A stretch of 43,142 bases of DNA, from positions 1 through 43,142 of the forward strand of contig CALWOA010000019.1 in assembly GCA_944382965.1 (NCBI GenBank). The letters run 5' to 3'. The position numbers and the translations under genes are program-made. The DNA comes from an uncultured Oscillospiraceae bacterium (GTDB lineage Bacteria > Bacillota > Clostridia > Oscillospirales > Oscillospiraceae). The stretch's first letter is position 1, and each line of letters opens with the position of its first letter. The notes under the pieces are model-generated. The model saw only the letters and a program-made list of their open reading frames with translations. It made no database searches and was not told where the DNA came from. Positions 1 to 41,826 of this stretch are shown piece after piece.

Positions 1-1
1 A

Positions 2-5317: not shown

Positions 5318-6250
5318 TCAGCCGGATACTCTATGCAATATCCTTTCTGTAGTGGACTCCAATGCTCCGTTGAAAAACTTATCCAGCACGGCCTTAAACC
5401 GCATATCCCCGGTAACAAGCCAAAAAAGTGTCATGGATGCCTGAATCTTGCACCGACAACCGTAATTTCCAATCTGCTCAATGGGTTTGTCTGTTTTAAG
5501 CAGGATTTCGGTTGCCTCCAGGAGTTTTCTGGATAATATTTCATGATTCCAATAATCCAGGGCTTCTTGCCTGTCCCGGAGAGAATATATATCACTATTA
5601 TGGAAACGGATGTCGGGCGTGTGTATGAGGCGTGGAAACAGAATATCTTCCGGTTGTTGATATACTGGCGCTTCCAACTTTCCTGCTTTCAACATCTCAA
5701 GTGCTTTGGGGTACCACCTTTCCAGGGCATTCTCAAATCGATCCAGCGTATAGGGCAGATTACCAAGCCGAAAAATTCGGAAAGGGCCTGTGAATTGACC
5801 ATGTTGATCTACATAAGTATAGAGGGTCACTTCCAGATCATCTTCGATGCCAAAACCGTCTTCATCTGCCCAGTAGCGACCGTCCGGCTGGATCTGCCAA
5901 AGCATAATCCAACGGTCCTTTCGCTGCTCAAAGCTGGTTCTAAACCGAATTTCCGGTTTCATTGCATTGGGGGATACTTGGCTTGTCCAGAAATCTTCCT
6001 TGATAATGCCGGGAAAATTCTGGATGGTTCCTGTACTATCCACAAGTACTGTTCGAATCCCATGCTGCTCATCAATGAAGTAAACAGGATCGTCTCTTCG
6101 TCCAAAAGTCACCATGTTGGTCAGATATGGTTTGGGGAAAGTCTGTTGTACGGAAGAAAGGTTGTGATCTTCCGCTCCTGATGCAGGAAGATTCTGCTTT
6201 CCCGAATTAGAGTCAACCTGTTTTTTGAATAGTTTCCTTAAAAAATTCAT
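5318..6250 (-). CDS. Protein with DUF1810-like C-terminal domain; last gene of the leftward operon
   Basis: This 310-residue protein starts at MNFLRKLF with GAGAGGG upstream. The N-terminal two thirds is not recognised. The last 90 residues align by eye with the DUF1810 protein encoded at 18865-19299: HEILSRKLLEAT against HPILGQNLLTIT, SMTLF against the same SMTLF-type motif, and FKAVLDKFFNG against FAAVLEKFYGG. DUF1810 proteins have no firmly known activity but occur near ADP-ribose genes. The WIWYIFPQ half of the domain is degenerate or absent here. It has no signal peptide and is probably cytoplasmic. Confidence 0.75.
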   Translation of the reverse strand: MNFLRKLFKKQVDSNSGKQNLPASGAEDHNLSSVQQTFPKPYLTNMVTFGRRDDPVYFIDEQHGIRTVLVDSTGTIQNFPGIIKEDFWTSQVSPNAMKPEIRFRTSFEQRKDRWIMLWQIQPDGRYWADEDGFGIEDDLEVTLYTYVDQHGQFTGPFRIFRLGNLPYTLDRFENALERWYPKALEMLKAGKLEAPVYQQPEDILFPRLIHTPDIRFHNSDIYSLRDRQEALDYWNHEILSRKLLEATEILLKTDKPIEQIGNYGCRCKIQASMTLFWLVTGDMRFKAVLDKFFNGALESTTERILHRVSG

Positions 6251-6308
6251 TTCTACCCTCTCCCATAATAAACCTGCGGATGTTGTTTCATTCCCTCTGC
6301 ATTGGGGT

Positions 6309-6692
6309 TCACTTCTTTTGATGGTGCAGCACCACAAAACCGGTTTTGCCGCTGTAATCCATGGCAATCAAGGTGCGGACAACTCGATCCGAGTGGGCGG
6401 CCCTCCAGCAGTCCACATACTGGTCTGAATCCATGGGATGCGCCACAACCTCGCAGTCGATCTGGTAGATGTTACTTTCCTGGTCGTCCTCAGTTGGAAT
6501 ACAGATCAGCTTTCCGCTGTCTAATCCCAGACGATAACCCAGAATTTTTCCTTTCCCGTCTGAAGTAGTACACAGATAGGTTTCAAAATCCTCCAATTTC
6601 AGTTTTTTCAGCTTCATTGTAGCCAGCATCGCATTGAGCTGCTGCAAATCTGTTTCTTCCCGCTCCGGGAAATCAAACGTGATGGTAATCAT
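6309..6692 (-). CDS. Unknown 127-residue soluble protein
   Basis: I do not recognise the family. The protein has a short N-terminal beta strand (MITITFDFP), an acidic/leucine-rich helix and then a mainly beta C-terminal half ending in Lys. It has no signal peptide or membrane segment. A GGAGGG site precedes the ATG with good spacing. It lies 58 bp upstream of the terminal operon gene and 91 bp downstream of another unknown gene, so it is transcribed with them. Confidence 0.7.
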   Translation of the reverse strand: MITITFDFPEREETDLQQLNAMLATMKLKKLKLEDFETYLCTTSDGKGKILGYRLGLDSGKLICIPTEDDQESNIYQIDCEVVAHPMDSDQYVDCWRAAHSDRVVRTLIAMDYSGKTGFVVLHHQKK

Positions 6693-6783
6693 CTTTGGGC
6701 CCTCCGATAGTGTATTCTTAAAGTCCAGATATGCCTGATGATGTGCAGGTACATCCGTTTCCTCTTTACCCGTCGAGGCGATT

Positions 6784-7290
6784 TCACCTGGCGGCGCTTG
6801 CTGCTTCTTTTAAAACAGACAACCACCTGTCGAAACTGGGGATAGATTTTTCCAGACCAACGTAAATTTTAATTCGTGGAATCTTAGCACCGTGGCGGCA
6901 GGAGAGCAGGACGACTTCGTTTCCCATTTCATATACTGCGATATGACTGGTGCTGTCCCACAACCGATCTGCATAATCAAAGGTTGGAATACTGGAATAG
7001 GAGAATAAAAACTTCGTTCCGTCCATGTGTTCACGGATTTCGTAGTCATCCGGATATTCTGCAAGGGTCTTCCCCTTCACAAAAGACAAGTCCGTAAATT
7101 CCCGCCCCTTAACCTGGTAGATGCAGCCCTGGATACCATTGTTCCAGTCATTGCGCTCTATCTCATAGGCCTCACGGAATTTTAATTCCCTGTCCATAGA
7201 AACAGGGCCAAACCAGGAGTAGGTGGTATTGGGCTTGGCGTTCAACTGCACGTTCCCCTGCAGTACGATTACTGCCTGCTTTGCATCCAC
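6784..7290 (-). CDS. Unknown 168-residue protein with GTG start
   Basis: The family is not recognised. The reading frame is open farther upstream, but the sequence GAGGAGGAAACAAA-GTG at 7290 gives an ideal ribosome site and a natural start (VDAKQAVIVLQGNV), while the upstream extension overlaps the BtpA-like gene. The protein is mixed alpha/beta with many aromatic residues and no signal peptide. It belongs to the distal end of the leftward operon. Use of GTG may lower its output. Confidence 0.7.
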   Translation of the reverse strand: MDAKQAVIVLQGNVQLNAKPNTTYSWFGPVSMDRELKFREAYEIERNDWNNGIQGCIYQVKGREFTDLSFVKGKTLAEYPDDYEIREHMDGTKFLFSYSSIPTFDYADRLWDSTSHIAVYEMGNEVVLLSCRHGAKIPRIKIYVGLEKSIPSFDRWLSVLKEAASAAR

Positions 7291-8112: not shown

Positions 8113-8754
8113 TCAGCGCTTTCGGCTGTTATAATCCTCGTCCACCGCTTTGCGCCACTTGTTGCCCATGATCCCGCAGCGCATTTCACTGACAGCACAG
8201 GCTACGCTGGCGAAGGTTGCCGCAGTTCCTGCCGCATCCGCATGGTAGTTGACGCTGCGTTCCGGGGCAATGCCCATGGCACCGGCGGTCTTGACCGCAT
8301 CCATATTGGCCCCCAGGAAGAGGAACTCCCAGCCTCTTTCCCGGCAACGGTTGATCATAGCCTTGACCGTATCCAGGCGGTATTCCTTGCTGGCATTCTC
8401 CAGCCCATCGGTTGTGATCACAAACAGGGTCTTTTCCGGACGCTGGCTTTCCAAAGTGTGGGCCTGGGCGTTTTCCACCTTGGTGATGGTACGGCCTACT
8501 GCATCCAGCAAAGCGGTGCAGCCCCGGACATAGTATTCCTTGGTGGTGATGTCTGCAATGCCAGTCAGGGGAATCCGGTCGTGGAGCAGCTCGTAGCCAT
8601 CGTCAAAGAGAACGGTGGTCACGATGGCTTCGCCGTCTTCCTTGCGCTGCTTGTCCAGCAGGGCATTGTAGCCACCCACAGTGTCGCTTTCCAGCCCCCG
8701 CATGGAACCGCTGCGATCCAGAATAAATACCAATTCCGTCAAATTCTTCTTCAT
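8113..8754 (-). CDS. VWA-domain protein, TerY-like
   Basis: The 213-residue protein is one von Willebrand factor A domain. The metal-ion site is intact: DRSGSM near residue 13, a Thr in GCTALLDAVG, and Asp in TTDGLEN. TerY-type VWA proteins assemble complexes with kinases and phosphatases in stress and conflict islands. Here the kinase of the same operon could be the partner (inference). ATG 8754 is chosen because GGAGGG lies 7 nt upstream. That ribosome site can be hidden by an upstream complementary segment, as listed separately. Confidence 0.88.
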   Translation of the reverse strand: MKKNLTELVFILDRSGSMRGLESDTVGGYNALLDKQRKEDGEAIVTTVLFDDGYELLHDRIPLTGIADITTKEYYVRGCTALLDAVGRTITKVENAQAHTLESQRPEKTLFVITTDGLENASKEYRLDTVKAMINRCRERGWEFLFLGANMDAVKTAGAMGIAPERSVNYHADAAGTAATFASVACAVSEMRCGIMGNKWRKAVDEDYNSRKR

Positions 8755-8757
8755 AAC

Positions 8758-8821
8758 AAAGCCCTCCATATTCTGTAATTCAGTGTTTTGCTGTACTGAC
8801 AGGATACCACAGGAGGGCTTT
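8758..8821 (-). promoter_or_regulatory. Inverted repeat able to hide the VWA ribosome site
   Basis: In the leftward mRNA, AAAGCCCTCC (8821-8812) is perfectly complementary to GGAGGGCTTT (8767-8758), which contains the Shine-Dalgarno sequence of the VWA gene. The 44-nt spacer holds a small CTGT/ACAG hairpin. This could switch VWA translation, or act as a weak attenuator. Confidence 0.5.
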
Positions 8822-8846: not shown

Positions 8847-9848
8847 TTAGAGAGAACCTAACAAAGGCTGGTCAAACTGAAACAAAATTGCGTTGATCTC
8901 AAAGATGTCGTAGCTGCCCTCGGAAATGAAATACTCCAGAATGATGTCAAACTTGCTGGTGTGGGTCAAAGCAAAGCCAGCTTTTCCCAGCAAATCCTTT
9001 GTTTCGTCCAGGGAAAGTTCCAGCGCCACGCACAAGGCCAGAACCGTCTGTTTGGTGGGCTTGTAATTCTTGTTGCTTCGGATTTTGGAAAACAATCGGC
9101 GATCCAGATTGGCCCGGTTGTATACCTCCGAGTCCTTTTTTCCCCGCTCGTCAATCAGCCGAAGCAGACACTGGGAGAAAGTCTCCTCCGTTTGAGCCAG
9201 CAGATCCGAAAGCCGGCGATGGGGCATGGCTTTCGGCATACAGGCGCTGGGAGGCGGAAGCGCACATTCGCCCCCGGCGCTCTCTTGAGGCTGCAGATGG
9301 AGATAGGTGCTGCGCTGCTGAACATATCGGTCATCAATGAATTGCTCTACTCTCTGGGTCAGCTTTTCCGACAGACAGAAAGAATCTTCATCATAGACCA
9401 CGAGATATACCGTCATGTCATGTTTCAGAAGAAAGGAACTGATTGCCGAAATCGCAATCTGCAAAGCCGCATCCTTTGGATAACCACAGGAGCCAGAGGA
9501 AATCAGGGGAAAGGCGATGGACTTCAGCCAATGCTTCTTCGCAAGATTCAGACTTTTTATGTAGCAGGCGCGCAGCAGTGCCTCCTCGTTCTGACTGCCG
9601 CCCTGCCATACAGGTCCAACTGCATGAATGACATACTTGGCAGGAAGGGCAAACCCCGGCGTCATCACCGCATTGCCAACCGCACAGCCTCCTATTTTCT
9701 GACAGGCCTTTTCCATTTTGTCATAACCCGCCCGGTCAAAAATGGAGCCGCAGACACCACCTCCGGAGCGCAGGCTGCGATCAGCCGCATTGACGATGGC
9801 ATCGGTCTTCATATGGACAATGTTGTCCCGGACAAATAATAATGGCAT
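8847..9848 (-). CDS. Macro-domain protein with C-terminal HTH-like domain
   Basis: The 333-residue protein starts with a canonical macro domain (1-170): DAIVNAADRSL, a GGGV phosphate loop, VIHAVGP and FPLISSGSCGYP. Macro domains bind or hydrolyse ADP-ribose, its derivatives, or ADP-ribosylated targets. The C-terminus (about 215-333) is an all-helical XRE/HTH-like unit with KPTKQTVLALCVALELS and LLGKAGFAL segments, often found after macro domains. It may bind nucleic acid or another operon protein. GGAGG lies before the ATG, and the gene is 41 bp from the NADAR-macro gene. Confidence 0.9.
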   Translation of the reverse strand: MPLLFVRDNIVHMKTDAIVNAADRSLRSGGGVCGSIFDRAGYDKMEKACQKIGGCAVGNAVMTPGFALPAKYVIHAVGPVWQGGSQNEEALLRACYIKSLNLAKKHWLKSIAFPLISSGSCGYPKDAALQIAISAISSFLLKHDMTVYLVVYDEDSFCLSEKLTQRVEQFIDDRYVQQRSTYLHLQPQESAGGECALPPPSACMPKAMPHRRLSDLLAQTEETFSQCLLRLIDERGKKDSEVYNRANLDRRLFSKIRSNKNYKPTKQTVLALCVALELSLDETKDLLGKAGFALTHTSKFDIILEYFISEGSYDIFEINAILFQFDQPLLGSL

Positions 9849-9889
9849 TTCCCGTCAGCCTCCTTGGGAGATTAATGGTTTCTCTGGTG

Positions 9890-10861
9890 TCAACCTTTCA
9901 GCGCCTCACAGAAGCCCCGGTATAGCGTCAGATCCACATCGGCAAAAATTACTTCCAACGGATAGTCCATATGTTCCTGCTTCCACTGCCGTACAGAAGT
10001 GACCGCAATTTCGGTGGCAGCCTTCTTGGGATAGCTGAATCTGCCCACAGATATGGCGGGAAAGGCAATGGAATGAATATGCTGCTTCGCTGCCAGATCC
10101 AGCACATTTTTGTAAGTATGCGCCAGCAGAGCGGCATCGTCCTTTACGCCGTAATGGGGCCCCACTGTGTGAATTACATGGCTTGCAGCCAGTCGATAGC
10201 CGGCGGTAAGTTTTGCTTCGGTTACTCCACAGCCTCCAAGCCTGCGGTACTCTTCCAGCAGCTGGGGACCTGCGGCGCGATAGACAGCAGCACTGTCTTC
10301 AACGGATTCCGTGGCGGCATGGACGATGCAGTCACAGGGAATCTGGGTAATATCCCGCAGCTGCACGCAAATACCGTCCGCGCTCATTTCCTGGCGGAAG
10401 GAATGCGCTTCCTTTCTTTCAGGAATGCCGTTTTGCTGAAAGTCTTTCCGAAGTGCCATCAGAAGTTTCCCCAGATGGTTTTCTCCTTCACCGGTTTTCA
10501 GGTCAACGCCCCAGAAGGTATCGTGCCAGGTATTTCCCTCGATCAGCTCTGCATCTCCGGTTTCCACCAGAAACTGTGCCAGATGAGGATTCTGGGTAAA
10601 CTTCGCCCGGAGGATTTTCTCCATTTCCTGGACCTTTACCTCTTCCCAATCGAACCGTTGAGGAACCTTCCGTCCCAAAATCTTGGAATCGTTGGAATTC
10701 AACTCCGTAAAAAGCAACCGGTCTTCTGCCTTTGCACACTTTGCCGCCTGATAGGCTGCCTCGGAGCAGAGATATTCCAGTCCGTCCACCTGGAGGCAGG
10801 CAGGGTAGAAGTTGCTTAAATAGTCATATTCCTGTCGAAAACGTTTGATTTTTTGCTCCAT
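9890..10861 (-). CDS. NADAR-macro fusion protein
   Basis: The 323-residue protein joins an N-terminal NADAR/YbiA-like domain (about 1-145: YLSNFYP, SEAAYQAAK, NTWHDTFWG) to a C-terminal macro domain (about 155-323: VIHTVGP, FPAISVGRFSYP). NADAR proteins cleave N-glycosidic bonds of ADP-ribosylated or riboflavin-type substrates. The macro half has lost the usual GGGV loop, reading SVEDSA at that place, so its ligand may differ from that of the neighbouring macro protein. ATG 10861 is preferred over 10870 because the GGAAGG site would touch the latter. Confidence 0.88.
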   Translation of the reverse strand: MEQKIKRFRQEYDYLSNFYPACLQVDGLEYLCSEAAYQAAKCAKAEDRLLFTELNSNDSKILGRKVPQRFDWEEVKVQEMEKILRAKFTQNPHLAQFLVETGDAELIEGNTWHDTFWGVDLKTGEGENHLGKLLMALRKDFQQNGIPERKEAHSFRQEMSADGICVQLRDITQIPCDCIVHAATESVEDSAAVYRAAGPQLLEEYRRLGGCGVTEAKLTAGYRLAASHVIHTVGPHYGVKDDAALLAHTYKNVLDLAAKQHIHSIAFPAISVGRFSYPKKAATEIAVTSVRQWKQEHMDYPLEVIFADVDLTLYRGFCEALKG

Positions 10862-10884
10862 AAACCCCATCCTTCCCCAGTGTT

Positions 10885-11445
10885 TCAGAGGTTATGTTCC
10901 TTGCCGGTACAGGATTCCTGATTCCAGAAAGGCAGATCTTTCAGAATGTTCCAGCACTTGGTTTCAATGTTGGCAACATCTTCTGTAACATGAATCTTCT
11001 CCTGCTCGTCGGCATAAACTACCCGGGTCATCTTGCCGTTACCCAGAAGGAAGAACCAGCGATGTCTGCGCTTCTCATAGAGATAATCGAAGCTGTCAAA
11101 GCAGGGAAACAATTCTGAGTAGTAGACCACATTTCTTCCGTAGATATCTGTGTATACCCCTGGAATTTCCGCTTTTTTCTGGCAAAGTTGCTCCCAGCTT
11201 TTATATGTTTTCCCGTCAGCGATGAAATTGCCGGGGTAGGAGAAGTTTCTTGTAGATTCGTTGGGAATGCGGATTGCTGCCGGTTGTCCATCCGGATTCG
11301 TTTCTGTGCTGACCCAGCGGATGCTTTGGGCGGAACCAACAAACAATTCATGCCGGGCTGTAGCTCCGACTCTGTATGCCTGGGGCTGCATATGCAAGTT
11401 TTGCTGAACTTTGTTCCCGCCAAATAATTTCTTTGAGTGAAACAT
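10885..11445 (-). CDS. Unknown 186-residue soluble protein
   Basis: The family is not recognised. The protein is rich in aromatic and polar residues, with a Tyr/Trp-rich C-terminal half (YLYEKRRHRWFFLLGNGKM) that looks like a small beta sheet. It has no signal peptide or membrane segment. The start at 11445 has a strong AGGGAGG 7 nt upstream. It lies between the 2H phosphodiesterase and the NADAR-macro gene, so a role in the RNA/ADP-ribose module is plausible. It does not show the motifs of KptA/Tpt1 2'-phosphotransferase. Confidence 0.7.
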   Translation of the reverse strand: MFHSKKLFGGNKVQQNLHMQPQAYRVGATARHELFVGSAQSIRWVSTETNPDGQPAAIRIPNESTRNFSYPGNFIADGKTYKSWEQLCQKKAEIPGVYTDIYGRNVVYYSELFPCFDSFDYLYEKRRHRWFFLLGNGKMTRVVYADEQEKIHVTEDVANIETKCWNILKDLPFWNQESCTGKEHNL

Positions 11446-11465
11446 ATGCTTTCCTCCCTGAAAAA

Positions 11466-12131
11466 TCATGTAGTAGTGTAATGGTTCATGTCAGAAAATC
11501 TTTGATGAACCAGTTTGCTCAGATCCAGCTGCAATTCCAGCTCAATGGGGCATAAAACATTTCTCAGGGCTTGCAGATGCGCAGCAGAATAGCTGCCTGG
11601 GCGGAAATAGGCCATGGTAATGTGGGGGGTCAGGCCATATCCCAGGGGAACCACAGCTTCCAAGGCGGTGTACATGGTGTCCAGGCGGAGGGCGGTTTCC
11701 TGATCTGTCGGAGCAAGCCCCAGAACAATGCTGGTGTTGACCATATTGAACAGCCAGGTGGTTTTCATCCGCAAAGGCGGCATATTTGCCCACTGGGCCA
11801 GCAATGCTTTTGCCTTTTGCTCCGCTTCTTCCATCCTCTGACACAGATCCGGCGTTTTCTCTGTTCCGTTTACCAAATCATGAAGAGTCATGTGAAAGGT
11901 ATCGGGGCTCAGCGGCTGGCTGAGCATCCAGCCAGCGGCATCCTGCAGCTGCGCTTGTAGCATTTTCAGATCTTCTTTTACCCCGTCGTCCAGCAGGAAC
12001 ACCACCGTATTTCCATAAAAGGGGAGAAAATTTCCGTCCCAGTCCACTTTCTTCAGCAGGTTGGGATTGGTCTGAAATTCTCCTTGCTCCGGCAGACTCC
12101 GGGAAATATAGTCCTCCAATAAATTCAGCAT
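11466..12131 (-). CDS. 2H phosphodiesterase (LigT/CPDase-like)
   Basis: The 221-residue protein carries the two HxT motifs that define the 2H superfamily, HMTLHDL and HITMAYF, about 100 residues apart. Members open 2',3'-cyclic phosphates or ADP-ribose 1'',2''-cyclic phosphate and were named for 2'-5' RNA ligation. Beside an RNA ligase, an HD-Pnk and macro proteins, processing of cyclic-phosphate RNA ends or by-products is the natural reading. AGGGAGG precedes the ATG. Confidence 0.87.
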   Translation of the reverse strand: MLNLLEDYISRSLPEQGEFQTNPNLLKKVDWDGNFLPFYGNTVVFLLDDGVKEDLKMLQAQLQDAAGWMLSQPLSPDTFHMTLHDLVNGTEKTPDLCQRMEEAEQKAKALLAQWANMPPLRMKTTWLFNMVNTSIVLGLAPTDQETALRLDTMYTALEAVVPLGYGLTPHITMAYFRPGSYSAAHLQALRNVLCPIELELQLDLSKLVHQRFSDMNHYTTT

Positions 12132-12157: not shown

Positions 12158-13312
12158 CTATTTTGGAAAGCGGTAATATCCCCTGGAGATGTACTGACCG
12201 GTCTTGATGGAGATTCCCTTCACACAGATATGGGTTTTTCCGATTTCCAGTTCTATTGCATTCCCTTCCGTCCAGGAAGCTGGTTGGAGGGGTTCCTCCG
12301 GCTTCAGTGTGGTGGGGCGAATGGAACCGGTATTGATGTACAGATTGCCGATCGAATCCCGTTCAATACATCCGGATTGGCAGTTCAGGGACACATGGGT
12401 ATGCCCGGAAAGAAAGAGGATATCCCTCTGGGAATCGAGGATTCCCTGCAATTTTTTATCCAGGTGCAGATAGGGCGGGTCCCCCGGCTGGTGATAGGGT
12501 CTGTGGTTTGCCAAAGGAGCGTGGCACAGGATAATCCGATTCCTTGCGCTGCTGTGATTCAGTCGATTGGCAAGCCAATCCAGCTGGGCGGATTCCGGGA
12601 AGCGGAATTTCCGCCAATGGGTCACCGCATTTAATCCGAAAATCTCCGTATCTCCAAAAGCGGCAGAGAAGGTGCCGCTGCTGTCTGCCTGGCAGGGAAT
12701 CCCCAAATTCGCTGCTCTGTCCAAAAGCGCTTTGTGTAACGCTGGATAATCTTCGATTCTCCGGCATATCTGGGGCAGGGGATGAACGGGATAGTCATGA
12801 TTTCCGGCAACGGCGAATACGGGTGTCTGGGGAATCACCTCCGTGACGCACTGCCAGAAGCGCATAAACTGCTCCGCTATGCCATCATTGGTGATATCCC
12901 CGGGGATGAGTACGCCGTCCCATCCCTTACCCATGGAAAGGGCTTTGCGAATCTGCCAGGGCTTGCTGCTCAGATGCAGATCAGACAGCACCAGAAAGCG
13001 CTGCGCCGGCTCTTTTTGGGGTAGATTACTCGGCATCGGTATGGGCACCAATACTGCGCTGGTGGCTTCCAGATCGGCAGAGACTGCCTTCATCAGCACA
13101 TGGGTGGCCTCATCAGGGACAGCCCGACCGCCGGTCATGTGATAAGAACCCACACCGTTTGGCTCAATCGGGAAATGGGCAAAGGATGTCCAGTTGGGAA
13201 GCGGGCCGTTTTCGTCTGCCCAATACAGGCTGGCAGCCAGAAATCCTCTTGCCTTCAGCTGGTAGAAGCCATCGGAATATCCGGGGCAGAGCTGCTTGAT
13301 CGTTCCTTCCAT
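12158..13312 (-). CDS. Metallophosphoesterase with N-terminal beta domain
   Basis: The 384-residue protein begins with an unrecognised beta-rich domain of about 100 residues. A calcineurin-like metallophosphoesterase follows (about 110-384): DLHL (DxH), GDITND, AGNHDYP, CHAPL and SGHTHVS, all key metal ligands present. Such enzymes hydrolyse phosphodi- or monoesters, including cyclic nucleotides. The ATG at 13312 is chosen for its GGGAAGGA site, and upstream starts would run through the HD-Pnk gene. The context points to nucleotide or RNA-end phosphate removal. Confidence 0.88.
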   Translation of the reverse strand: MEGTIKQLCPGYSDGFYQLKARGFLAASLYWADENGPLPNWTSFAHFPIEPNGVGSYHMTGGRAVPDEATHVLMKAVSADLEATSAVLVPIPMPSNLPQKEPAQRFLVLSDLHLSSKPWQIRKALSMGKGWDGVLIPGDITNDGIAEQFMRFWQCVTEVIPQTPVFAVAGNHDYPVHPLPQICRRIEDYPALHKALLDRAANLGIPCQADSSGTFSAAFGDTEIFGLNAVTHWRKFRFPESAQLDWLANRLNHSSARNRIILCHAPLANHRPYHQPGDPPYLHLDKKLQGILDSQRDILFLSGHTHVSLNCQSGCIERDSIGNLYINTGSIRPTTLKPEEPLQPASWTEGNAIELEIGKTHICVKGISIKTGQYISRGYYRFPK

Positions 13313-34507: not shown

Positions 34508-34546
34508 AGCATCTGCTTCATCCAAAATTATGGAAGGGGTTTAACT

Positions 34547-35017
34547 GTGAGTAAAGAATTAGTACTAGGTATGTTGGTTGGTGCAGTTGGGGGTGCTGCT
34601 GGCAGCACGCTTCTCGGAAAAATAAAAAAGAAGATAAAAAACTCAGAATCGCCGGGAGAAAATGGTGTAGCTGTCCAAAGCGGTATATCCTTTGATGAGC
34701 TATTTCGCAATCGAACAGTGGTAGATACGATTAGTATGTCGATTTTGCTTCCTTGGTATCGGGCGCAAAAGGAGCAGTATATCAACGAAAACTGCACACT
34801 ATTCCTGGCAAAAGTCACGGAACAAACAGCACAGATGTTTTGCTTAGGAGAGATTCCGGCGGAATTTAACCGGGATAACTGCACACTTCAAGTGGTGGCG
34901 GTACAGCGGGAACAAGGTTATGTGCCGGAAGAAATTCATCTCGTTACATTTACACAAATGGACGATAGCCTTCTGCAACGTTTTTCCAGCAGAGATTATA
35001 TCGTGGTCATAGATTAA
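34547..35017 (+). CDS. Unknown protein with glycine-zipper helix
   Basis: The 156-residue protein starts at GTG 34547 with GAAGGGG upstream. It has an N-terminal small-residue-rich helix (GMLVGAVGGAAGSTLLG) and then a basic stretch, typical of membrane insertion or packing. A soluble alpha/beta domain of about 100 residues follows, ending in YIVVID. The family is not recognised. It sits directly before the pseudo-GTPase gene. Confidence 0.72.
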   Translation: MSKELVLGMLVGAVGGAAGSTLLGKIKKKIKNSESPGENGVAVQSGISFDELFRNRTVVDTISMSILLPWYRAQKEQYINENCTLFLAKVTEQTAQMFCLGEIPAEFNRDNCTLQVVAVQREQGYVPEEIHLVTFTQMDDSLLQRFSSRDYIVVID

Positions 35018-35064: not shown

Positions 35065-36168
35065 ATGGAGGAAAATACAACAGATAATTTTGCCCGATAT
35101 CATGCCATGCGTTCAGAAATCCTCAACAGCCTGAGCCGGATGGCAGCAATCTGTGAGAAACTGAATCTGAAGGAACGTGGGGAATCCTTGTTGGACAGGC
35201 GCAGAAAGTTGCAGAAGCACAGGTTTTCGGTTGTTATTTTAGGCGAGTTCAAAAAAAGTAAAGCTACAGTTATTAGTGCGTTGTTGGGACAAGAAATCAT
35301 GCCATATGCCATGGTTGGCGGCTCTGCAACCATGTTCCGTGTCACCTACGGCCCAAATCTATGTGCACAGGTGCATATGATGGACGGCTCCCGGGTAGAT
35401 ATCCCGATAGAGGATTTACCCAAATATGTCACAACTTCGAATGACAATGCTACAGCAATGTTGGAAAGAATAGACGAGGTCGTTGTTTACCATCCCTGCC
35501 GCTTCTGCCAGAACGGCGTGGATATTTTGGATGCACCAGGCCTTGATGTCGACGAACAGAAGAATAAGCTCACGGAGGACATCCTTCCCAAACCGGATGC
35601 CGTTATTATGGTATTGGCGGTAGACTGTCCCATCAGCATCGGGGAGGCAGAATTCATCCGTAGCGAGCTGTCACCCTTAGGTACGGAGCGGCTGATTTTC
35701 CTGGTAAACAGAATCAATACGGTCCCATCTGGACACCGGCAAACAGTGGTAAACAAAATTCAGGAGAAAATCCGGAAAACCGTGCTGGATAAAACGGAAG
35801 AAGAATATGGTAAGGAATCCGCTCAGTACCGGATAGCACAGGAAAAGCTGGCAGATATCAGAATTTACCCCATTTCCGCACTGGATGCGCTGGATGGGCG
35901 GCTGGATGGCGACGAGGAGCTGCTGCGGAAAAGTGGGATCCTGGAATTCGAGGACGGACTGAGCCGCATGCTCACGACCTGTGAACTCAGCAGCCCCATG
36001 ATGGAGCTGATCCACACCGGGATGCTAGTACGTAAAACCATCCGAAAAAGTAGAGACCTGCGGCGCCGCGCATGGACACAGCTTGATGACGAGGATTATC
36101 GCCTCCTGGAAAAAACGGCCTGCGCCAGCAAAACAATACTCTCGCACTTTTCGGACGTTTTGACATAA
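35065..36168 (+). CDS. Dynamin-like pseudo-GTPase, truncated
   Basis: The 367-residue protein is clearly related to the first 315 residues of the next gene's product, but all nucleotide motifs are altered. G1 is GEFKKSKA instead of GEFKRGKS (invariant Gly and the Mg-binding Ser lost). The G2 threonine region reads MVGGSAT instead of ITPCSAT. G3 is DAPG for DTPG, and G4 is NRIN for NKID. The stalk and membrane hairpin are missing and the last 50 residues diverge. It probably cannot hydrolyse GTP and may regulate or cap the partner GTPase. Confidence 0.87.
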   Translation: MEENTTDNFARYHAMRSEILNSLSRMAAICEKLNLKERGESLLDRRRKLQKHRFSVVILGEFKKSKATVISALLGQEIMPYAMVGGSATMFRVTYGPNLCAQVHMMDGSRVDIPIEDLPKYVTTSNDNATAMLERIDEVVVYHPCRFCQNGVDILDAPGLDVDEQKNKLTEDILPKPDAVIMVLAVDCPISIGEAEFIRSELSPLGTERLIFLVNRINTVPSGHRQTVVNKIQEKIRKTVLDKTEEEYGKESAQYRIAQEKLADIRIYPISALDALDGRLDGDEELLRKSGILEFEDGLSRMLTTCELSSPMMELIHTGMLVRKTIRKSRDLRRRAWTQLDDEDYRLLEKTACASKTILSHFSDVLT

Positions 36169-36215: not shown

Positions 36216-38270
36216 ATGGCAAATATCACGGATGTTTATACCAGCTACCATGCCATGAGCGCAGAAATCACCGAAGGCCTGAGCCAGATGGCAAAAATCT
36301 GCGAGAAACTGGATTTGAAGGAGCGTGCAGAATCCTTGATGGAAAGCCGCAGAAAGCTGCAGGAGCACAGGTTTTCCGTCGGTATTCTGGGTGAATTCAA
36401 ACGGGGCAAAAGCACGGTCATCAATGCGCTGCTTGGCCAGGAGATTATGCCGGCTGACATTACCCCCTGTTCCGCAACCATGAACCGGGTTACCTATGGC
36501 TTGTCTCCTCGTGCCCAAGTGAACATGACGGATGGCTCCCATGTGGATATCGCAGTAGAAGATTTGGCAAAATATGTCACAAAACTGGACGAAGACGCTA
36601 TAGCAATGTCTGAAAAAGTGGAAGAGGCCATTGTCTACTATCCCTGCCGCTTCTGCCAGAACGGCGTGGATATTGTGGACACGCCAGGCCTGAACGATGA
36701 TGAACGGATGAACAAGATTACGGAAAATATCGTTCCAAAGCTGGATGCCGTCATTATGGTACTGGTGGCAGGTAACCCCTTCAGCATCAGCGAAGCGGAA
36801 TTTGTCCGAAATAAGCTCATGTGCAGTGACGTGGGCCGACTGATTTTCCTGGTAAACAAAATTGATACCGTTCGGCCTAAGGATCGGGACAAGGCAATAA
36901 ATGGAATCCGTGAGAAGATCCGGAAAACCGTGCTGGACAAAACAGAAGATGTTTACGGCAAGAACTCGGACCAGTACCGGATGGTCCAGGCCAAGCTGGC
37001 GGAGATCCGGATCTACCCCATTTCTGCAATGAATGCTCTGGATGGTCGGATGGAAGGCGACGAGAAACTGCTGGAAAAGAGCGGAGTGCCGGAATTTGAG
37101 GCGGCATTGAGCCATATGCTCACGGAAGAGCGGGGAATTCTGGAACTCAGCGGCCCCATGATGAAACTTGCAAGCATGGGCCCGGCAGTGAACGAGGTCA
37201 TCGACCAGAAGTTGAACTGTATGGACTTGGATGCGAAGGCATTCCTTGAAACACAGCAGAAAACGGTAAGCGAAATTAAGAAGCTGAGGGAGCAGAAAAA
37301 AGAAGAAAAAAGAAAGTTGCGGGAGCAGTCTAAAATGATTGCACAAGATCTGACTGGGAAGGCAGAGGAGTGTTATCAGGAAATTGAGCGTGAAGCTGCG
37401 AAAATCATCGATGAAATGCAGCCAAGAGGGAGGATGACTGTTTCGGACAAACAACAGTTGATTGCAGAAACTGTTGCAAAAATTGAAAATAAGATTCCAG
37501 ATATTTTGTCTGTTCACACGGAGCGAATCATAGCCAATATTAACACTTCTATTCAGAAAGAAGGTGAGAAACTCTCTTTCGAACTGATTGGGAAGGGGTT
37601 GGATAACGTCAATGCACACCTAAACAATATCAAACTGGATGAGAAAAAATCATCTGCCGGTAAAGATATTGGATCTATGGCGGCAGGCGCGATGCTGGAG
37701 ACTTTTAGTCCCATTTGGGGTGTTGGAGGGGCCATTGAGGGCTTCCGTACAGCAGGAATCAAAGGCGGCATTACAGGAGGGCTGTCCGGCTGTGCAATTA
37801 GTTATGCGGGAATGTGTTTGGCAGCAACATTGGGAGCAGCAGCCTTTCCTGCAGTTCTTCTTGGGGCAGCGGCGGGTGCATTTGGTGGGAGAGCAATTAC
37901 AAGACTCCTGTTTCAAAATGACCTTGCCCGGACACAGCTTGTTAGCTTGCAGCAAGACTTGAAGAGTCAAGTGTTCGCATCCATCCAGCAAATGCGGCTG
38001 TCAGGCCAACTGGAAATGTGGATTAGCAAGGAAGTTAAATCACAATATGATGACTTGATTGGCACGATGGAAAATGAATGTGAAAAAATCGTTGATGAAA
38101 CTCAACGTAAAATTGCAGCCATCAGCCAGACTTTGACAGCATCCGAAGCACAACGAGATGCCCAGCGGAAAGACCTGAAGGAGTTGGGGCAGGAAAGTGC
38201 AGCGTTGATTCAGAAACTGGAGCCAGTTTATCGGAAGGTTCTGGATGTTCCTACGATGGCAGCAGTGTGA
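36216..38270 (+). CDS. Dynamin-like GTPase, copy B, with membrane hairpin
   Basis: The 684-residue protein has intact G1 GEFKRGKS (59-66), G3 DTPG (155-158) and G4 NKID (214-217). A coiled-coil stalk spans about 340-400 (KKLREQKKEEKRKLREQ). A long Gly/Ala-rich hydrophobic region at about 488-565 probably inserts into membranes, and a helical C-terminus follows. This is the classic layout of bacterial dynamins that tubulate or fuse membranes. It lies 47 bp after the pseudo-GTPase gene with AAGGAGAG before the ATG. Confidence 0.92.
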   Translation: MANITDVYTSYHAMSAEITEGLSQMAKICEKLDLKERAESLMESRRKLQEHRFSVGILGEFKRGKSTVINALLGQEIMPADITPCSATMNRVTYGLSPRAQVNMTDGSHVDIAVEDLAKYVTKLDEDAIAMSEKVEEAIVYYPCRFCQNGVDIVDTPGLNDDERMNKITENIVPKLDAVIMVLVAGNPFSISEAEFVRNKLMCSDVGRLIFLVNKIDTVRPKDRDKAINGIREKIRKTVLDKTEDVYGKNSDQYRMVQAKLAEIRIYPISAMNALDGRMEGDEKLLEKSGVPEFEAALSHMLTEERGILELSGPMMKLASMGPAVNEVIDQKLNCMDLDAKAFLETQQKTVSEIKKLREQKKEEKRKLREQSKMIAQDLTGKAEECYQEIEREAAKIIDEMQPRGRMTVSDKQQLIAETVAKIENKIPDILSVHTERIIANINTSIQKEGEKLSFELIGKGLDNVNAHLNNIKLDEKKSSAGKDIGSMAAGAMLETFSPIWGVGGAIEGFRTAGIKGGITGGLSGCAISYAGMCLAATLGAAAFPAVLLGAAAGAFGGRAITRLLFQNDLARTQLVSLQQDLKSQVFASIQQMRLSGQLEMWISKEVKSQYDDLIGTMENECEKIVDETQRKIAAISQTLTASEAQRDAQRKDLKELGQESAALIQKLEPVYRKVLDVPTMAAV

Positions 38271-38349: not shown

Positions 38350-39348
38350 ATGAATGAACTGACGAGTAAATTATCCCCGATTGCAGATATGGACTGCAGT
38401 TTCCGCTCTTATCTAAACAGTAAAAAAGCTCATGAAGCAGCGCATATGAAAGGAAACGGCATCCCGGACTATGCCTATGGCATGGACTACGAGTTGCGCA
38501 AAAAGTTGGACAGCATTCCCGGATTATATAAAGTTGCCAGAAGTATTACCTCGACCATCGTACATCAGCAGATGCAAATTATGAACCAGCAGGCCGTATG
38601 TGCAACGCCCACCAGTTTCCCGGATGTTTACGAAATCGGCTGCGAATGTGCCCGCCGGCTGGGAATTGCTGTTCCCAACATTTTCATTGTGAATGATCAG
38701 ACACTCAATGCCTATACTTACGCCTGCGATGATGTGGAGCCGTTCATTGTCCTTCACAGCGGCCTCTACGAACGTATGACCCCCGGTGAATTAAAATCCA
38801 TTATCGGTCACGAATGCGGACATATCCAGAACTATCATGGCAGCTATGAGACCATTGCAACGTTGATCGCTCAGGAGGGACTGAGTGCGCTGGGCGGTTT
38901 ATCTGCATTTTTCCTTTCAGTCTTCACAACCGGTGTACAGCTTGCGCTGAATTCTTGGAGCCGTGCCGCAGAGGTAACCTGCGATCGGGCAGGACTGATC
39001 TGCGCGGATAATTTGGAGGACGCTCTGTCCGCAGAGGCAAAGCTAATGTATGGCGGTGCCTTTGGCGATCACAAGATAGACTATGCGTCGATTGAAGAGC
39101 AGTTGGAGCTTCAGATGAGCAATGCCACAAAGTATTACGAAGCATTGTATTCGCATCCAACTTCAGCAAGACGTATAATGGCCATCCGGGAATTTTATGA
39201 ATGCCAAACCTTCTACGATTGGCGGCCGGATATGAGAAAAGCCGACTCTATTCTCCGGTCTCATAAAGAATGTGACGAACGTTGTAAAAAGTTTATCAAT
39301 CTGACAGAGGAAGGCACCCGCAGCAAAAGGGGGAAGGAAAATGAATAA
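38350..39348 (+). CDS. M48-family zinc metallopeptidase
   Basis: The 332-residue protein has the zinc-binding HECGH at 154-158 and the third ligand Glu in SRAAEVTCDRAG (Glu about 208), as in M48/HtpX/Ste24 peptidases. Unlike HtpX it lacks N-terminal membrane helices; one hydrophobic segment (about 180-200) may dip into the membrane. It ends in basic residues and its gene overlaps the next GTPase gene by 8 nt, so the products are coupled. It could mature or degrade the operon's membrane proteins. Confidence 0.9.
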   Translation: MNELTSKLSPIADMDCSFRSYLNSKKAHEAAHMKGNGIPDYAYGMDYELRKKLDSIPGLYKVARSITSTIVHQQMQIMNQQAVCATPTSFPDVYEIGCECARRLGIAVPNIFIVNDQTLNAYTYACDDVEPFIVLHSGLYERMTPGELKSIIGHECGHIQNYHGSYETIATLIAQEGLSALGGLSAFFLSVFTTGVQLALNSWSRAAEVTCDRAGLICADNLEDALSAEAKLMYGGAFGDHKIDYASIEEQLELQMSNATKYYEALYSHPTSARRIMAIREFYECQTFYDWRPDMRKADSILRSHKECDERCKKFINLTEEGTRSKRGKENE

Positions 39349-41083
39349 TGCAATTGTATACGACATCGAAGATTTAAGATGCAGACTGGATAGCTACCTG
39401 GATGGGCTCAGCCAGTTGCGCCACTCTGAAAAATATCGTGAGCTGCTCGGTGAGGCATTTTCTTTCAAAGTGACTGCGTGGGAACAGAGCATTCGCCGTC
39501 AGAAGGATATGCCGTTTACGATTGTTGTCTGCGGCGAATTCAAGAGGGGAAAATCCAGCTTTATCAATTCCCTGCTGGGAGAGGATGTGGTTACCACCGA
39601 TGTAACAACAGAGACGATTACCCTGAACAAAATTAGTTATGGTCCCCACAGCAACGCTTTGGTTCTGGAAAAAGGGAAACGAATGCTTCTGACAGATGAG
39701 CAGCTTCGTCGGGAGCATTTGGAGGAGATTTTGGAGAAAGCAGATGGTAATTTCTACGAACTGGAGCTGAAACGGCCAATAGAATTCCTCAAAAAGGTTA
39801 CCATTGTAGATACCCCCGGCTTGAGTGACTCATTGCAGGATTTCAGTCCCATGGTAATAGAATCGTTAATGCAGGCAGATGCAGTAATTTACATTTTTTC
39901 TGCAATTTATCCGCTGTCTTACAGGGAACAGGTATTTTTGAAGAACAGTGTGATCCCCCAGAAACATACCGATTTGCTACTAGTGGCGAATTATGTAGAT
40001 ATGCTTAGAAATGATGCGGAGCTGGAACGGATGTATAAAGAAATTCAGTCTCGTATTCATTCCCTGATGCCAGGGGAAGATGCCTATATGATCAGTGCGC
40101 TGGATGAGCGCTGCCGTCAGATCGGTACACCTCGCCCCAACGAGAAGACCCAGGGGAAACTGGAGGCAAACTTTGCTGCTCTGCGAGACGATATTGTCAA
40201 TTTGGTCGACACAAAATGTGACATGGTATTGCCTGACCGCATGGAACGCATGATTCAGGGAATGCAGGCAGATCTGCAGTCGTACCTGGATGGCATCGCC
40301 CGTAGCCTGGACACTAGCGAGGATGCGCTGAAAGAGGAGCAGAAGAAGTCTGATGTGGCAACAACCGAAATGCTTGTGCAGCAGACCCAGGCCATTGAAA
40401 ACATCAAAACTGCAATTCAGAATATGAAAGCGGAAACCGAAACCTGGTTGAAGCAAGTCATTTTGAAAATGCGAAAGGAAATCGCTGATTTTAGTTCCTT
40501 TGATATTCGGGATGTGAGAAAATACTACCCCATCTACTGTATCGACACCCTGCAGGATGCATTGAGCCGCTGTTTCGACTACCACACGGATGTGCTGTAC
40601 GATATGCTGGATGAAATTTCCGGTAAACTCACAAAGAATATGCCTTCCGACATCAACAATTTGGGAATGAAAGCCAGTTTTCGCTTTGTACTGAATAATA
40701 AGACATGGACAAAGGGAGATAACGTTGCGTTGGCCCTGAATTTTGTTTCTTTGAACAACCCGATTTTGGACTTGGTGGCAAAGGGAGTCGCAGGAGGGAT
40801 GCGGGACAAGGAAATGAGCAGCAATACTCAGGAGGTCTATCAAGATATTCGCAATCAATACGATAAGTTGGAAAAGTCATTACCTGCGGTCATCACAAAC
40901 ATATATAGTCATTTGGAGAAACAGCTGTCGGTCCTCCTCCAGGCATACTATTCCGAAAAGGCAGCAGATTTGAAAAATCAGATGGAACAGATGCGCTTGA
41001 TCGTTCATAGGAGTACTGAGGAAAAAAATCAGATTAGACAAGCAGTTAAGTCAGTTCGCAGCATACTTGAGGAAATGGCGTAA
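39341..41083 (+). CDS. Dynamin-like GTPase, copy C
   Basis: The 580-residue protein has G1 GEFKRGKS at 65-72, a TTETITL G2 region, G3 DTPG at 157-160 and a weaker G4 (NYVD). The helical stalk includes coiled coils (about 325-370 and 500-570). A moderately hydrophobic stretch near 455-490 could touch the membrane. It is distinct from copies A and B, so three separate GTPases are encoded. Overlap with the M48 gene points to a functional pair. Confidence 0.9.
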   Translation: MNNAIVYDIEDLRCRLDSYLDGLSQLRHSEKYRELLGEAFSFKVTAWEQSIRRQKDMPFTIVVCGEFKRGKSSFINSLLGEDVVTTDVTTETITLNKISYGPHSNALVLEKGKRMLLTDEQLRREHLEEILEKADGNFYELELKRPIEFLKKVTIVDTPGLSDSLQDFSPMVIESLMQADAVIYIFSAIYPLSYREQVFLKNSVIPQKHTDLLLVANYVDMLRNDAELERMYKEIQSRIHSLMPGEDAYMISALDERCRQIGTPRPNEKTQGKLEANFAALRDDIVNLVDTKCDMVLPDRMERMIQGMQADLQSYLDGIARSLDTSEDALKEEQKKSDVATTEMLVQQTQAIENIKTAIQNMKAETETWLKQVILKMRKEIADFSSFDIRDVRKYYPIYCIDTLQDALSRCFDYHTDVLYDMLDEISGKLTKNMPSDINNLGMKASFRFVLNNKTWTKGDNVALALNFVSLNNPILDLVAKGVAGGMRDKEMSSNTQEVYQDIRNQYDKLEKSLPAVITNIYSHLEKQLSVLLQAYYSEKAADLKNQMEQMRLIVHRSTEEKNQIRQAVKSVRSILEEMA

Positions 41084-41116
41084 CGCTGTATCCCTGCGAA
41101 TTATCTTCCGGAGTAC

Positions 41117-41146
41117 AGACGGGATGGTCGTATCGATCATCCCGTC
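41117..41146 (+). promoter_or_regulatory. Intergenic hairpin after the last GTPase gene
   Basis: GACGGGATG pairs perfectly with CATCCCGTC across a 12-nt loop in the 158-bp gap before the last zinc-ribbon gene. No U tract follows, so it is more likely an mRNA-stabilising element or partial attenuator than a strong terminator. Confidence 0.4.
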
Positions 41147-41241
41147 CCGGCAAAATCGCTGTGGCGTACTGGCTCTGCTGCAGCCCTAGAACAGGTGTAG
41201 GTCGTGCCTGGACATGAAAGTAAAAAAGGTGGTATCATGTT

Positions 41242-41826
41242 ATGAAAAAGTGTCCCAATTGCCAGACCGAATTCCCAGATGCACAGTTTTTCTGTGCGAA
41301 CTGCGGCACCAAACTCGAAGCACCAAAGATGCCAGCATCAAAGCCTCCGGCTGCAAAGAAACGCAGTTCTTTCGGCATGTTTGCCGTGATCTTGGCAGCC
41401 ATACTCGTCATCTTCTTGGTAGCCCAATATATGACGGTTCCACACGACTCCTATGAAGCCATATCCACCAGCCAGCAAACCAATGATTTGATCCTTCCGA
41501 TTCTCGAAGATGAAGATTTTCAGATCATTGAACCCAAAAATTCCAATGTATTAACCCCGGAGCAGCAAAATCTATTCATGGCAGCCGGCGATGTTCTTAA
41601 CGATGTGGTCCCGTCGGACATGATCGTACAGAATTTCTTCTATCTTTCCACAGCGGAACAATGCACAGCAGCATTTAATATTAATATCAAAGATTATAAA
41701 GACATTCTTTTTCTGCAATATGTCAATGGAAACTGGGTAAATCTTGACTATATAATTCTGGCGGGTGGACAAATAATGGTAGACTCACTGGTTGACGCCC
41801 CTACGGCAATTTTGGCCCTCTCTTAG
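41242..41826 (+). CDS. Zinc-ribbon membrane protein, last gene of the rightward operon
   Basis: The 194-residue protein begins with a ribbon (CPNCQTEFPDAQFFCANCGT), then a Pro/Lys linker, one membrane helix (about 50-67, MFAVILAAILVIFLVAQYM) and an outside domain of about 120 residues with alternating helices and strands. It parallels the protein encoded at 31869. The start at 41242 is an ATG after AAGGTGG. It may be the membrane end of the zinc-ribbon network. Confidence 0.8.
   Translation: MKKCPNCQTEFPDAQFFCANCGTKLEAPKMPASKPPAAKKRSSFGMFAVILAAILVIFLVAQYMTVPHDSYEAISTSQQTNDLILPILEDEDFQIIEPKNSNVLTPEQQNLFMAAGDVLNDVVPSDMIVQNFFYLSTAEQCTAAFNINIKDYKDILFLQYVNGNWVNLDYIILAGGQIMVDSLVDAPTAILALS

What the first reader, a model, noticed from the sequence alone, without database searches (positions are those of the whole stretch)
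5318..41826. Two divergent operons forming one large candidate stress/anti-invader island
About 36 kb is read outward from one 227-bp intergenic region. The left operon pairs membrane kinase-NACHT signalling with RNA repair and ADP-ribose chemistry; the right one has dynamin GTPases, a pseudo-GTPase, an M48 peptidase and zinc-ribbon proteins. Each class occurs in known conflict systems, but I know of no described system with all of them. Seen: gene order, overlaps, promoters. Inference: they work together.
Basis: partly seen in the sequence, partly recalled or inferred. Interest (0 to 1): 0.85.

Follow-up and report, generated by a model that had tools for sequence, protein, structure and literature searches.

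The report
Modular membrane-signalling and RNA-repair island
A bacterium related to gut Clostridia carries a 36-kb two-sided gene cluster that joins a membrane sensor kinase, RNA-repair and ADP-ribose-removing enzymes, and membrane-remodelling dynamins; parts of the set recur in other genomes in other combinations, which suggests a swappable stress or anti-invader toolkit rather than one fixed machine.

Summary
In detail: two divergent gene runs (5318-28929 minus, 29157-41826 plus) leave one 227-bp region with back-to-back near-consensus promoters. The island is a composite of three separately conserved modules: A, a triad of helical protein, transmembrane kinase-NACHT and lipoprotein; B, dynamin/M48/zinc-ribbon genes; C, RNA repair (HD-Pnk, RNA ligase) plus ADP-ribose enzymes. 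A+B+C together was seen only in the window, and most other loci held one module. Yet modules meet in other arrangements: A with C (one contig), distant dynamin/M48 genes with A (five) or with C (one, divergent), window-type B facing an ADP-ribosylglycohydrolase/HD pair (one), C with another kinase (two). RNA ligase is in 9 of 31 kinase-NACHT genomes against 2 of 390 in a class draw (relatedness not controlled). Same-genus islands add KptA and RtcB, linking RNA repair to ADP-ribose chemistry. Best reading: a patchy, envelope-sensing stress/anti-invader programme that repairs RNA, clears ADP-ribose and guards the membrane. Function is inferred, not tested. Part of C resembles the published ARG-centric systems; my searches showed no description of the combination.

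The parts
1..5240 (+). Flanking piece of an integrative/mobilisable element: AAA (RepA-like) 576-1697, MobA-type relaxase 1852-3309, tyrosine integrase 3886-5007; a sequence at 5107-5225 beside the integrase recurs elsewhere in the genome
   Evidence: Pfam AAA_25, Relaxase, Phage_integrase; 5107-5225 matches in part C25, C38, C39, C59 of the same genome; C59 also has an integrase 3' end nearby. Borders the island, not part of it.
5318..6692 (-). DUF1810-domain protein (5318-6367 as an ORF, true start probably inside) and a 127-aa unknown, l24 (6309-6692)
   Evidence: Pfam DUF1810 E 1.5e-17; both families recur in G592:C11 and G616:C49
6784..8074 (-). 211-aa unknown (l23) and BtpA-family protein (7355-8074)
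   Evidence: Pfam BtpA 3.4e-23; l23 recurs in G147, G145, G506, G139, G592
8113..8769 (-). VWA domain protein
   Evidence: Pfam VWA_CoxE E 3.1e-5, 23.9 bits, below the cut-off of 26.4; family recurs in G142, G616, G713, G790
8847..10870 (-). Macro domain with HTH-like tail (8847-9848) and NADAR-Macro fusion (9890-10870)
   Evidence: Pfam Macro E 6.8e-38; NADAR 2.2e-26 and Macro 1.5e-27
10885..12131 (-). 194-aa unknown (l18) and 2H/LigT phosphoesterase (11466-12131)
   Evidence: Pfam LigT_PEase 3.5e-6 and 2_5_RNA_ligase2 2.8e-6
12158..13528 (-). Calcineurin-like phosphoesterase (true start probably near 13348)
   Evidence: Pfam Metallophos E 2.3e-14
13350..14462 (-). HD-Pnk: HD domain plus P-loop polynucleotide kinase
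   Evidence: Pfam AAA_33 6.4e-27, HD 3.6e-8; motifs HDxGK and GLPGTGKD
14459..15301 (-). RNA ligase
   Evidence: Pfam RNA_ligase 4.9e-35; motif KVDG
15288..15968 (-). SAM methyltransferase beside the ligase
   Evidence: Pfam Methyltransf_23 1.3e-13; not a Hen1 equivalog (20 bits against cut-off 340)
15955..16821 (-). CpsB/CapC-type phosphatase
   Evidence: Pfam CpsB_CapC 5.7e-56
16691..18868 (-). Two-domain ADP-ribosylglycohydrolase
   Evidence: Pfam ADP_ribosyl_GH 1e-135, two stretches
18865..20268 (-). DUF1810 protein (18865-19299) and two DUF5684 membrane proteins
   Evidence: Pfam
20265..21074 (-). EcsC family protein
   Evidence: Pfam EcsC 1.3e-39; recurs in G142, G126, G139, G592, G616
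21112..22621 (-). Small unknowns l6, l5 and l4 (21989-22621); the l4 family recurs beside A, B and C modules
22618..23397 (-). HD_4 protein related to the hydrolase half of RelA/SpoT
   Evidence: Pfam HD_4 1.6e-12; TIGR00691 E 7.9e-26 over residues 76-220
23455..24651 (-). Module A: lipoprotein, predicted helical bundle plus beta domain outside the cell
   Evidence: Lipobox-like N-terminus by eye; AF2 pLDDT 88.4, no PDB match at E<=0.001; conserved neighbour of the kinase
24648..27548 (-). Module A: kinase - NACHT/STAND - membrane span - external tail
   Evidence: Pfam Pkinase 6.7e-14, NACHT 1.2e-5; span 719-737; 32 related loci
27634..28929 (-). Module A: 431-aa all-helical protein, first gene of the left operon
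   Evidence: No Pfam, PADLOC or NCBIfam match; AF2 pLDDT 81.4, no PDB match at E<=0.001; cluster of 28 loci counting the window
28930..29156 (.). Divergent control region: promoters 29041-29069 (+) and 28997-28969 (-); paired 19-mers at 29018-29036 and 29120-29138
   Evidence: the 19-mer pair is the only match in the window at up to 3 mismatches, 0.07 expected, but the pattern was drawn from these two sites
29157..30929 (+). Module B: dynamin-like GTPase
   Evidence: Pfam Dynamin_N 6.4e-27
30960..35017 (+). Module B: six proteins with zinc-ribbon matches (two with predicted membrane spans), a related 122-aa protein without a match (32856-33224), and r9 (34547-35017)
   Evidence: two of the six (33267-33644, 34097-34507) only by matches below the cut-off
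35065..36168 (+). Module B: truncated pseudo-GTPase copy of the next gene
   Evidence: Dynamin_N 2.4e-20; GTP motifs degenerate
36216..38270 (+). Module B: LeoA-like dynamin
   Evidence: Dynamin_N 1.6e-26; LeoA profile 5.4e-30; PDB 2j68 bacterial dynamin-like protein 6.4e-39
38350..39348 (+). Module B: M48 peptidase
   Evidence: Pfam 2e-23; EVTCDRAG motif; HECGH visible in the translation
39341..41083 (+). Module B: further dynamin-like GTPase
   Evidence: Dynamin_N 4e-19
41242..41826 (+). Zinc-ribbon membrane protein
   Evidence: DZR 2.3e-5, 24.9 bits, below the cut-off of 27.3; span 43-61

Best explanation
The island is a composite, patchily inherited stress and anti-invader programme. Module A (lipoprotein outside, kinase-NACHT across the membrane, helical partner inside) senses damage or attack at the envelope and signals by phosphorylation. 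Module C repairs RNA cut by ribotoxins (HD-Pnk heals ends, RNA ligase seals) and uses 2H, macro, NADAR and ADP-ribosylglycohydrolase enzymes to remove ADP-ribose by-products and adducts; a SpoT-like HD hydrolase may reset the stringent signal. Module B (dynamins, M48 peptidase) stabilises or reseals the membrane. Shown: gene content, divergent layout, conservation of each module, recurrent linkage in other genomes. Inferred: the signal, the phosphorylation targets, the substrates, joint control of the two operons and any effect on phages.
For: Families. Module A triad in many genomes. Linkage: G142:C138 carries A, an AAA-ATPase gene set and C on one strand within 27 kb; G506:C254 has M48 and dynamins with HD4, ARG, NADAR and calcineurin genes divergent from methyltransferase-ligase-HD-Pnk; G145:C138, G132:C15 and G147:C37 carry A with dynamins (M48 in the first two; in G145 the contig ends inside the kinase); G124:C1 and L023 carry A with M48-family genes. 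G641:C1 has the window-type B operon facing an ARG-HD4 pair across 237 bp (ARG confirmed by Pfam, HD4 only weakly). G713:C17 and G790:C3, of one genus, carry C behind a different kinase; Pfam of the G713 one shows kinase plus leucine-rich repeats. Genome association: RNA ligase 9 of 31 against 2 of 390, Fisher p about 1e-9. In the same genus G616:C49 adds KptA and G592:C11 adds RtcB. Of 41 genomes in a genus draw only the window's own has the queried 20 kb as a whole at DNA level (at most 7 candidates scored per genome). Published support for membrane defence by a dynamin: B. subtilis DynA (PMC8844932, start of abstract in a search listing).
Against: Most loci carry one module only. The A+B+C layout was seen once. 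The window-type B operon stood apart from A and C in four of five other genomes, and the M48 genes joined to A or C elsewhere are a more distant variant (25-32% identity). Nine of the ten HD-Pnk loci in kinase-NACHT genomes are not on the kinase's contig, though some contigs are short. No transcript, phenotype or substrate data. Relatedness, habitat and search depth were not controlled in the association test. The paired 19-mers were not found in any other locus.
Confidence: 0.45

Rival explanations
1. Neighbourhood effect: three independent accessory systems share an insertion hotspot, as in ordinary defence islands, and do not act together.
For: Integrase element at the left edge; 77 identical bases at the window's right end shared with the far side of the G592 island; modules mostly found apart; different G+C of the two operons, 51.9% and 46.1%; patchy in the genus.
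Against: Mixed gene order inside single co-directional runs (G506, G147, G139), the divergent B / ARG-HD4 pair in G641, and the same small families (l4, l23, EcsC) recurring beside different modules.
Confidence: 0.35
2. General stress response to antibiotics, bacteriocins or RNA damage with no special role against invaders.
For: RNA repair, a SpoT-like hydrolase, EcsC and dynamins all fit cell stress; the DynA abstract seen mentions membrane surveillance against antibiotics as well as phage.
Against: Very patchy distribution: RNA ligase in 6 of 399 and M48 in 5 of 399 other genomes of the family draws; reshuffling as in conflict systems.
Confidence: 0.15
3. A suicide (abortive) system in which the kinase-NACHT triggers membrane damage by dynamins or peptidase, and the ADP-ribose and RNA enzymes are antidotes.
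For: NACHT/STAND proteins and membrane effectors are typical of abortive defence (established knowledge); PADLOC kinase models match the kinase domain.
Against: No recognised toxin, nuclease or ADP-ribosyltransferase family among the 40 window proteins scanned; repair enzymes outnumber possible effectors.
Confidence: 0.05

Closest known systems
ARG-centric host systems predicted to counter viral ADP-ribosylation (Iyer et al. 2022, PMC9503650; section 3.8 read in full)
   Same: ADP-ribosylglycohydrolase without a coupled ADP-ribosyltransferase, alarmone-type HD and calcineurin phosphatases, VWA, Macro and NADAR genes, modular reshuffling
   Different: No Nudix or WYL regulator and no rhodanese phosphatase found here; adds RNA ligase/HD-Pnk, a kinase-NACHT triad and dynamin/M48 genes; the lineages that the section names (actinobacteria, planctomycetes, proteobacteria) do not include Clostridia
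Bacterial RNA repair systems of the Pnkp-Rnl-Hen1 and HD-Pnk type (Pnkp1-Rnl-Hen1 paper PMC4411300 seen only in a search listing; HD-Pnk systems of Burroughs and Aravind 2016 recalled, not held)
   Same: End-healing HD-Pnk next to an RNA ligase and a methyltransferase
   Different: The methyltransferase is not Hen1 by model; ADP-ribose enzymes, sensor kinase and dynamins are joined in the same island
Bacterial dynamin systems (LeoABC; B. subtilis DynA, PMC8844932, start of abstract in a search listing)
   Same: Dynamin GTPases, LeoA profile match 5.4e-30
   Different: Three dynamins plus a degenerate copy with M48 peptidase and zinc-ribbon proteins; the 684-aa one is far below the DynA model cut-off (50.9 against 1600 bits)
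Bacterial NACHT (bNACHT) and kinase defence proteins (PD-T4-6, MAD6)
   Same: Kinase domain matches PD-T4-6 (7.1e-21) and MAD6 (9.5e-15); NACHT-type P-loop
   Different: Kinase, NACHT and a membrane span with external tail in one protein, with two conserved partner genes

Membership tests
ARG-centric host system (PMC9503650) | ADP-ribosylglycohydrolase core | tested here: met
   Pfam ADP_ribosyl_GH 1e-135, two stretches
ARG-centric host system (PMC9503650) | No coupled ADP-ribosyltransferase or sirtuin | tested here: met
   None among the 40 window proteins scanned with Pfam at E<=0.05. A same-genus island, G616:C49, does carry KptA, a member of that superfamily that acts on RNA
ARG-centric host system (PMC9503650) | Phosphatase coupled to ARG | tested here: met
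   HD_4 and calcineurin families in the same operon; ARG next to HD4 in G506 and G641
ARG-centric host system (PMC9503650) | Nudix or WYL one-component regulator (in a little over 42% of published cases) | tested here: not met
   No such family; not filed as a member, only as similar in part
ARG-centric host system (PMC9503650) | Predicted peptide-binding chaperone such as VWA or SseB | tested here: inconclusive
   VWA_CoxE E 3.1e-5 but 23.9 bits, below the cut-off of 26.4
HD-Pnk / RNA ligase repair module | HD domain fused to P-loop polynucleotide kinase, beside an RNA ligase with KxDG | tested here: met
   HD motif in 19 of 19 HD-Pnk rows and GLPGTGKD in 15 of 19, window included
Pnkp-Rnl-Hen1 repair complex | Hen1 methyltransferase | tested here: not met
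   TIGR04074 20 bits against cut-off 340
LeoABC / bacterial dynamin defence | LeoA/LeoBC-type dynamins | tested here: inconclusive
   PADLOC LeoA 5.4e-30 and LeoBC 2e-24 on the 684-aa protein; operon context differs
bNACHT (bacterial NLR-related proteins) | NACHT domain above the family threshold | tested here: inconclusive
   25.6 bits against 26.7
bNACHT (bacterial NLR-related proteins) | Anti-phage activity | not testable with these tools
PD-T4-6 kinase defence | Whole-protein match to the kinase defence model | tested here: not met
   Best match covers residues 20-309 of 966 only

The most novel reading that the evidence does not exclude
A bacterial envelope-sensing kinase-NACHT receptor, with its own lipoprotein and intracellular partner, switches on one integrated survival programme that mends ribotoxin-cut RNA, strips ADP-ribose from RNA and protein, resets the alarmone and reseals the membrane through dynamins tuned by an M48 peptidase, the last pair working like mitochondrial OMA1 and OPA1 (analogy recalled; OMA1/OPA1 seen only in a search listing).
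Probability: 0.2. Interest if true: 0.85.

Novelty: new variant of a known kind. Interest (0 to 1): 0.6.

Why it matters
If the modules act together, bacteria would have a single switchable response that couples membrane sensing to RNA repair, removal of ADP-ribose and membrane repair, which have so far been described as separate systems. The module A triad is in itself a conserved gene set; two of its three proteins matched no family or solved fold here, and it gives a direct entry point for genetics. The KptA, 2H and NADAR genes of the same-genus island would make the proposed link between RNA repair and ADP-ribose clearance testable.

Tried and rejected
Scans of viral contigs with the kinase-NACHT alignment and with the RNA ligase confirmed no relative in that collection. 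tRNA and Rfam (gathering threshold) scans of the window were empty. Fold searches with the models of the 431-aa protein and the lipoprotein gave no PDB match at E<=0.001. The idea that the kinase's external tail and the lipoprotein are related was rejected (hhalign probability 1.2). The paired 19-mers of the divergent region were found in two of the 145 loci held by then, both copies of the window. The figures were set aside for the main test because only the two best candidates per genome were scored there; they point the same way (HD-Pnk and ligase in 3 of 391 others). A first family draw found full-length HD-Pnk or ligase in 0 of 119 others, a larger one the ligase in 6 of 399. In the counts I dropped two weak rows: L033 (62-aa HD4 fragment on the other strand) and L036 (methyltransferase at 6e-5). 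The tally of M48/dynamin clusters used for the binomial (4 of 11) was made by hand, where a few genomes had one or two candidates left unscored.
Full report
What is there. The window is contig C19, 43142 bases, of a 2.63-Mb genome in 60 contigs. Two co-directional gene runs leave a 227-bp region: left, 28929 down to 5318; right, 29157 to 41826. Families were assigned with Pfam, and for ten chosen proteins each with PADLOC and NCBIfam. At the left edge lies an integrative element with relaxase and integrase; a sequence beside its integrase recurs in other contigs of the genome. In the 24000-43142 scan the divergent region holds the two best promoter-like sites and a pair of 19-base repeats seen nowhere else in the window; since the search pattern was drawn from these two sites, the expected 0.07 only says that further copies are absent.

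Three modules. A scan of genome contigs with a two-sequence kinase-NACHT alignment gave 32 loci, with record titles of Clostridia, Eubacteriales, Oscillospiraceae, Lachnospiraceae and their kin. Clustering, window counted, showed one conserved triad: the kinase in 30 loci, the 431-aa helical protein in 28 and the lipoprotein in 20, with many contigs too short to hold all three. This is module A. The window's right operon has counterparts in G132:C77, G164:C18, G617:C2, G641:C1 and G755:C45: dynamin, usually zinc ribbons, LeoA-like dynamin, M48, dynamin: module B. The RNA-repair and ADP-ribose genes form module C, seen at large scale in two genomes of the window's own genus: G592:C11, where a run of about 36 kb, plus strand but for one called ORF, includes ARG, CpsB, methyltransferase, RNA ligase, HD-Pnk, calcineurin, RtcB, HD4, BtpA, NADAR, 2H and EcsC genes, and G616:C49, which has KptA, NADAR, 2H, VWA, EcsC and BtpA genes up to the contig end.

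Linkage. In 31 genomes that carry kinase-NACHT, HD-Pnk was found in 10 and the RNA ligase in 9. The ligase was found in 2 of 390 other genomes of a class draw and in 6 of 399 of a family draw, one of the six apparently a kinase-NACHT genome again (G807, same coordinates as G125). Fisher for 9 of 31 against 2 of 390 gives about 1e-9, without control for relatedness or habitat. On single contigs: A with C in G142:C138, with a seven-gene set between them (an AAA ATPase and a protein with only a weak MreB match, which I first took for Hsp70-like, among them) that also precedes C in G592. A with dynamin or M48-family genes in G132:C15, G145:C138, G147:C37, G124:C1 (the contig fetched under handle G071) and L023 (the L023 copies lack HExxH). 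Dynamin/M48 with C in G506:C254, in a divergent layout without kinase-NACHT. Dynamin/M48 with EcsC in G126:C32 and G139:C1, in G139 also with HD4, l23, l4 and a macro-HTH relative. Window-type B facing ARG and HD4 across 237 bp in G641:C1; the HD4 match is clear with the iterated profile (135 bits) but weak in Pfam (E 0.0083). C with a kinase of another kind in G713:C17 and G790:C3, which belong to one genus; Pfam of the G713 one shows kinase and leucine-rich repeats, and the membrane span between them I saw only by eye. Of 11 M48/dynamin clusters listed in the 31 genomes, 4 lie at a module A locus; with a chance of 1.3% each (20 kb either side in 3 Mb) the binomial gives about 1e-5, and 2e-4 with a chance of 3% (tally by hand).

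Against. Of the 32 loci, 23 show no B or C family in the stretch held, many of them on short contigs; nine do (L017, L018, L019, L022, L023, L030, L040, L045, L046), L018 only by l4. Four of five other window-type B operons stand apart from A and C; one of the four lies on a contig of 11.5 kb, G617 has an l6 relative about 6 kb off and G132:C77 the end of a DUF1810 gene about 15 kb off. Of 19 other contigs with RNA ligase or HD-Pnk, eight carry only the core or part of it (G122, G133, G128, G121, G144, G125, G137, G833:C2). The M48 genes joined to A and C elsewhere are 25-32% identical to the window's, so they are a distant variant. In the family draws, M48 (5 of 399 others) and RNA ligase (6 of 399 others) share two genomes, Fisher p 0.0019, but on different contigs, and one of these M48 proteins is a distant 790-aa form. 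Two class-draw genomes with the ligase, G356 and G302, had no match to the module A, M48 or EcsC query at 1e-8.

Mechanism. The kinase keeps the glycine loop, lysine, HxDxxxxN and a DYN variant of DFG, identical in its 45% relative (motif reading recalled). A membrane span after the NACHT part is predicted in 18 of 22 related proteins of 930-1080 aa and in the window's (simple hydropathy). HD-Pnk keeps the HD motif in 19 of 19 rows and GLPGTGKD in 15; RNA ligase keeps KxDG in 19 of 19; M48 keeps HExxH in 14 of 17 rows, the three without being the L023 pieces; of 32 dynamin rows 31 have the P-loop and 32 DxPG, but only 5 a standard NKxD. KptA makes an ADP-ribose cyclic phosphate in RNA repair, 2H enzymes are said to open such cyclic phosphates and macro domains to act on the product (PMC9503650, passages), so the KptA and 2H genes of G616 and the 2H and macro genes of the window fit one chemistry. 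The window itself has no KptA by Pfam. The signal, the kinase targets and the joint use of A, B and C remain inference.

Literature. Of PMC9503650 I read section 3.8 in full, the outline with abstract, the figure legends and passages; of PMC7159879 passages; other papers only in search listings with abstract starts. The search for dynamin with ADP-ribosylglycohydrolase, RNA ligase and bacteria returned no paper; the listings showed none that, by title and abstract start, describes the combination. The library lacks most subscription journals and the 2016 RNA-repair survey. The HD-Pnk name and the OMA1-OPA1 analogy are recalled.

Noticed in passing
window 5107-5225: A 119-bp sequence with a 16-pair hairpin beside the integrase recurs, whole or in part, in four other contigs of the genome; one copy (C59) lies near an integrase 3' end. 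Probably an element end or attachment region.
   Followed up: partly
window 35065-36168: Truncated dynamin copy with all three GTP motifs degenerate, next to its intact paralogue; no such extra copy is mapped in the five other window-type operons. Decaying duplicate or pseudoenzyme is open.
   Followed up: partly
L143:2802-11540 and L065:13591 to L066:2140: A conserved seven-gene set accompanies module C in two genomes. Of the four G592 proteins scanned one is an AAA ATPase, one has a weak MreB match and two have none; three were not scanned.
   Followed up: partly
L163/L164 (G713:C17) and L165/L166 (G790:C3): RNA-repair/ADP-ribose islands led by another kinase, with leucine-rich repeats in G713, in place of the kinase-NACHT.
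   Followed up: partly
L124:11300-12988 and relatives: A family of about 420-560 aa sits between M48 and dynamin in five contigs; the one member scanned matched nothing in Pfam.
   Followed up: partly
window 43066-43142: The last 77 bases are identical to a stretch just beyond the end of the G592 island, close to an ORF that looks like an insertion-sequence gene (label recalled, not tested).
   Followed up: no
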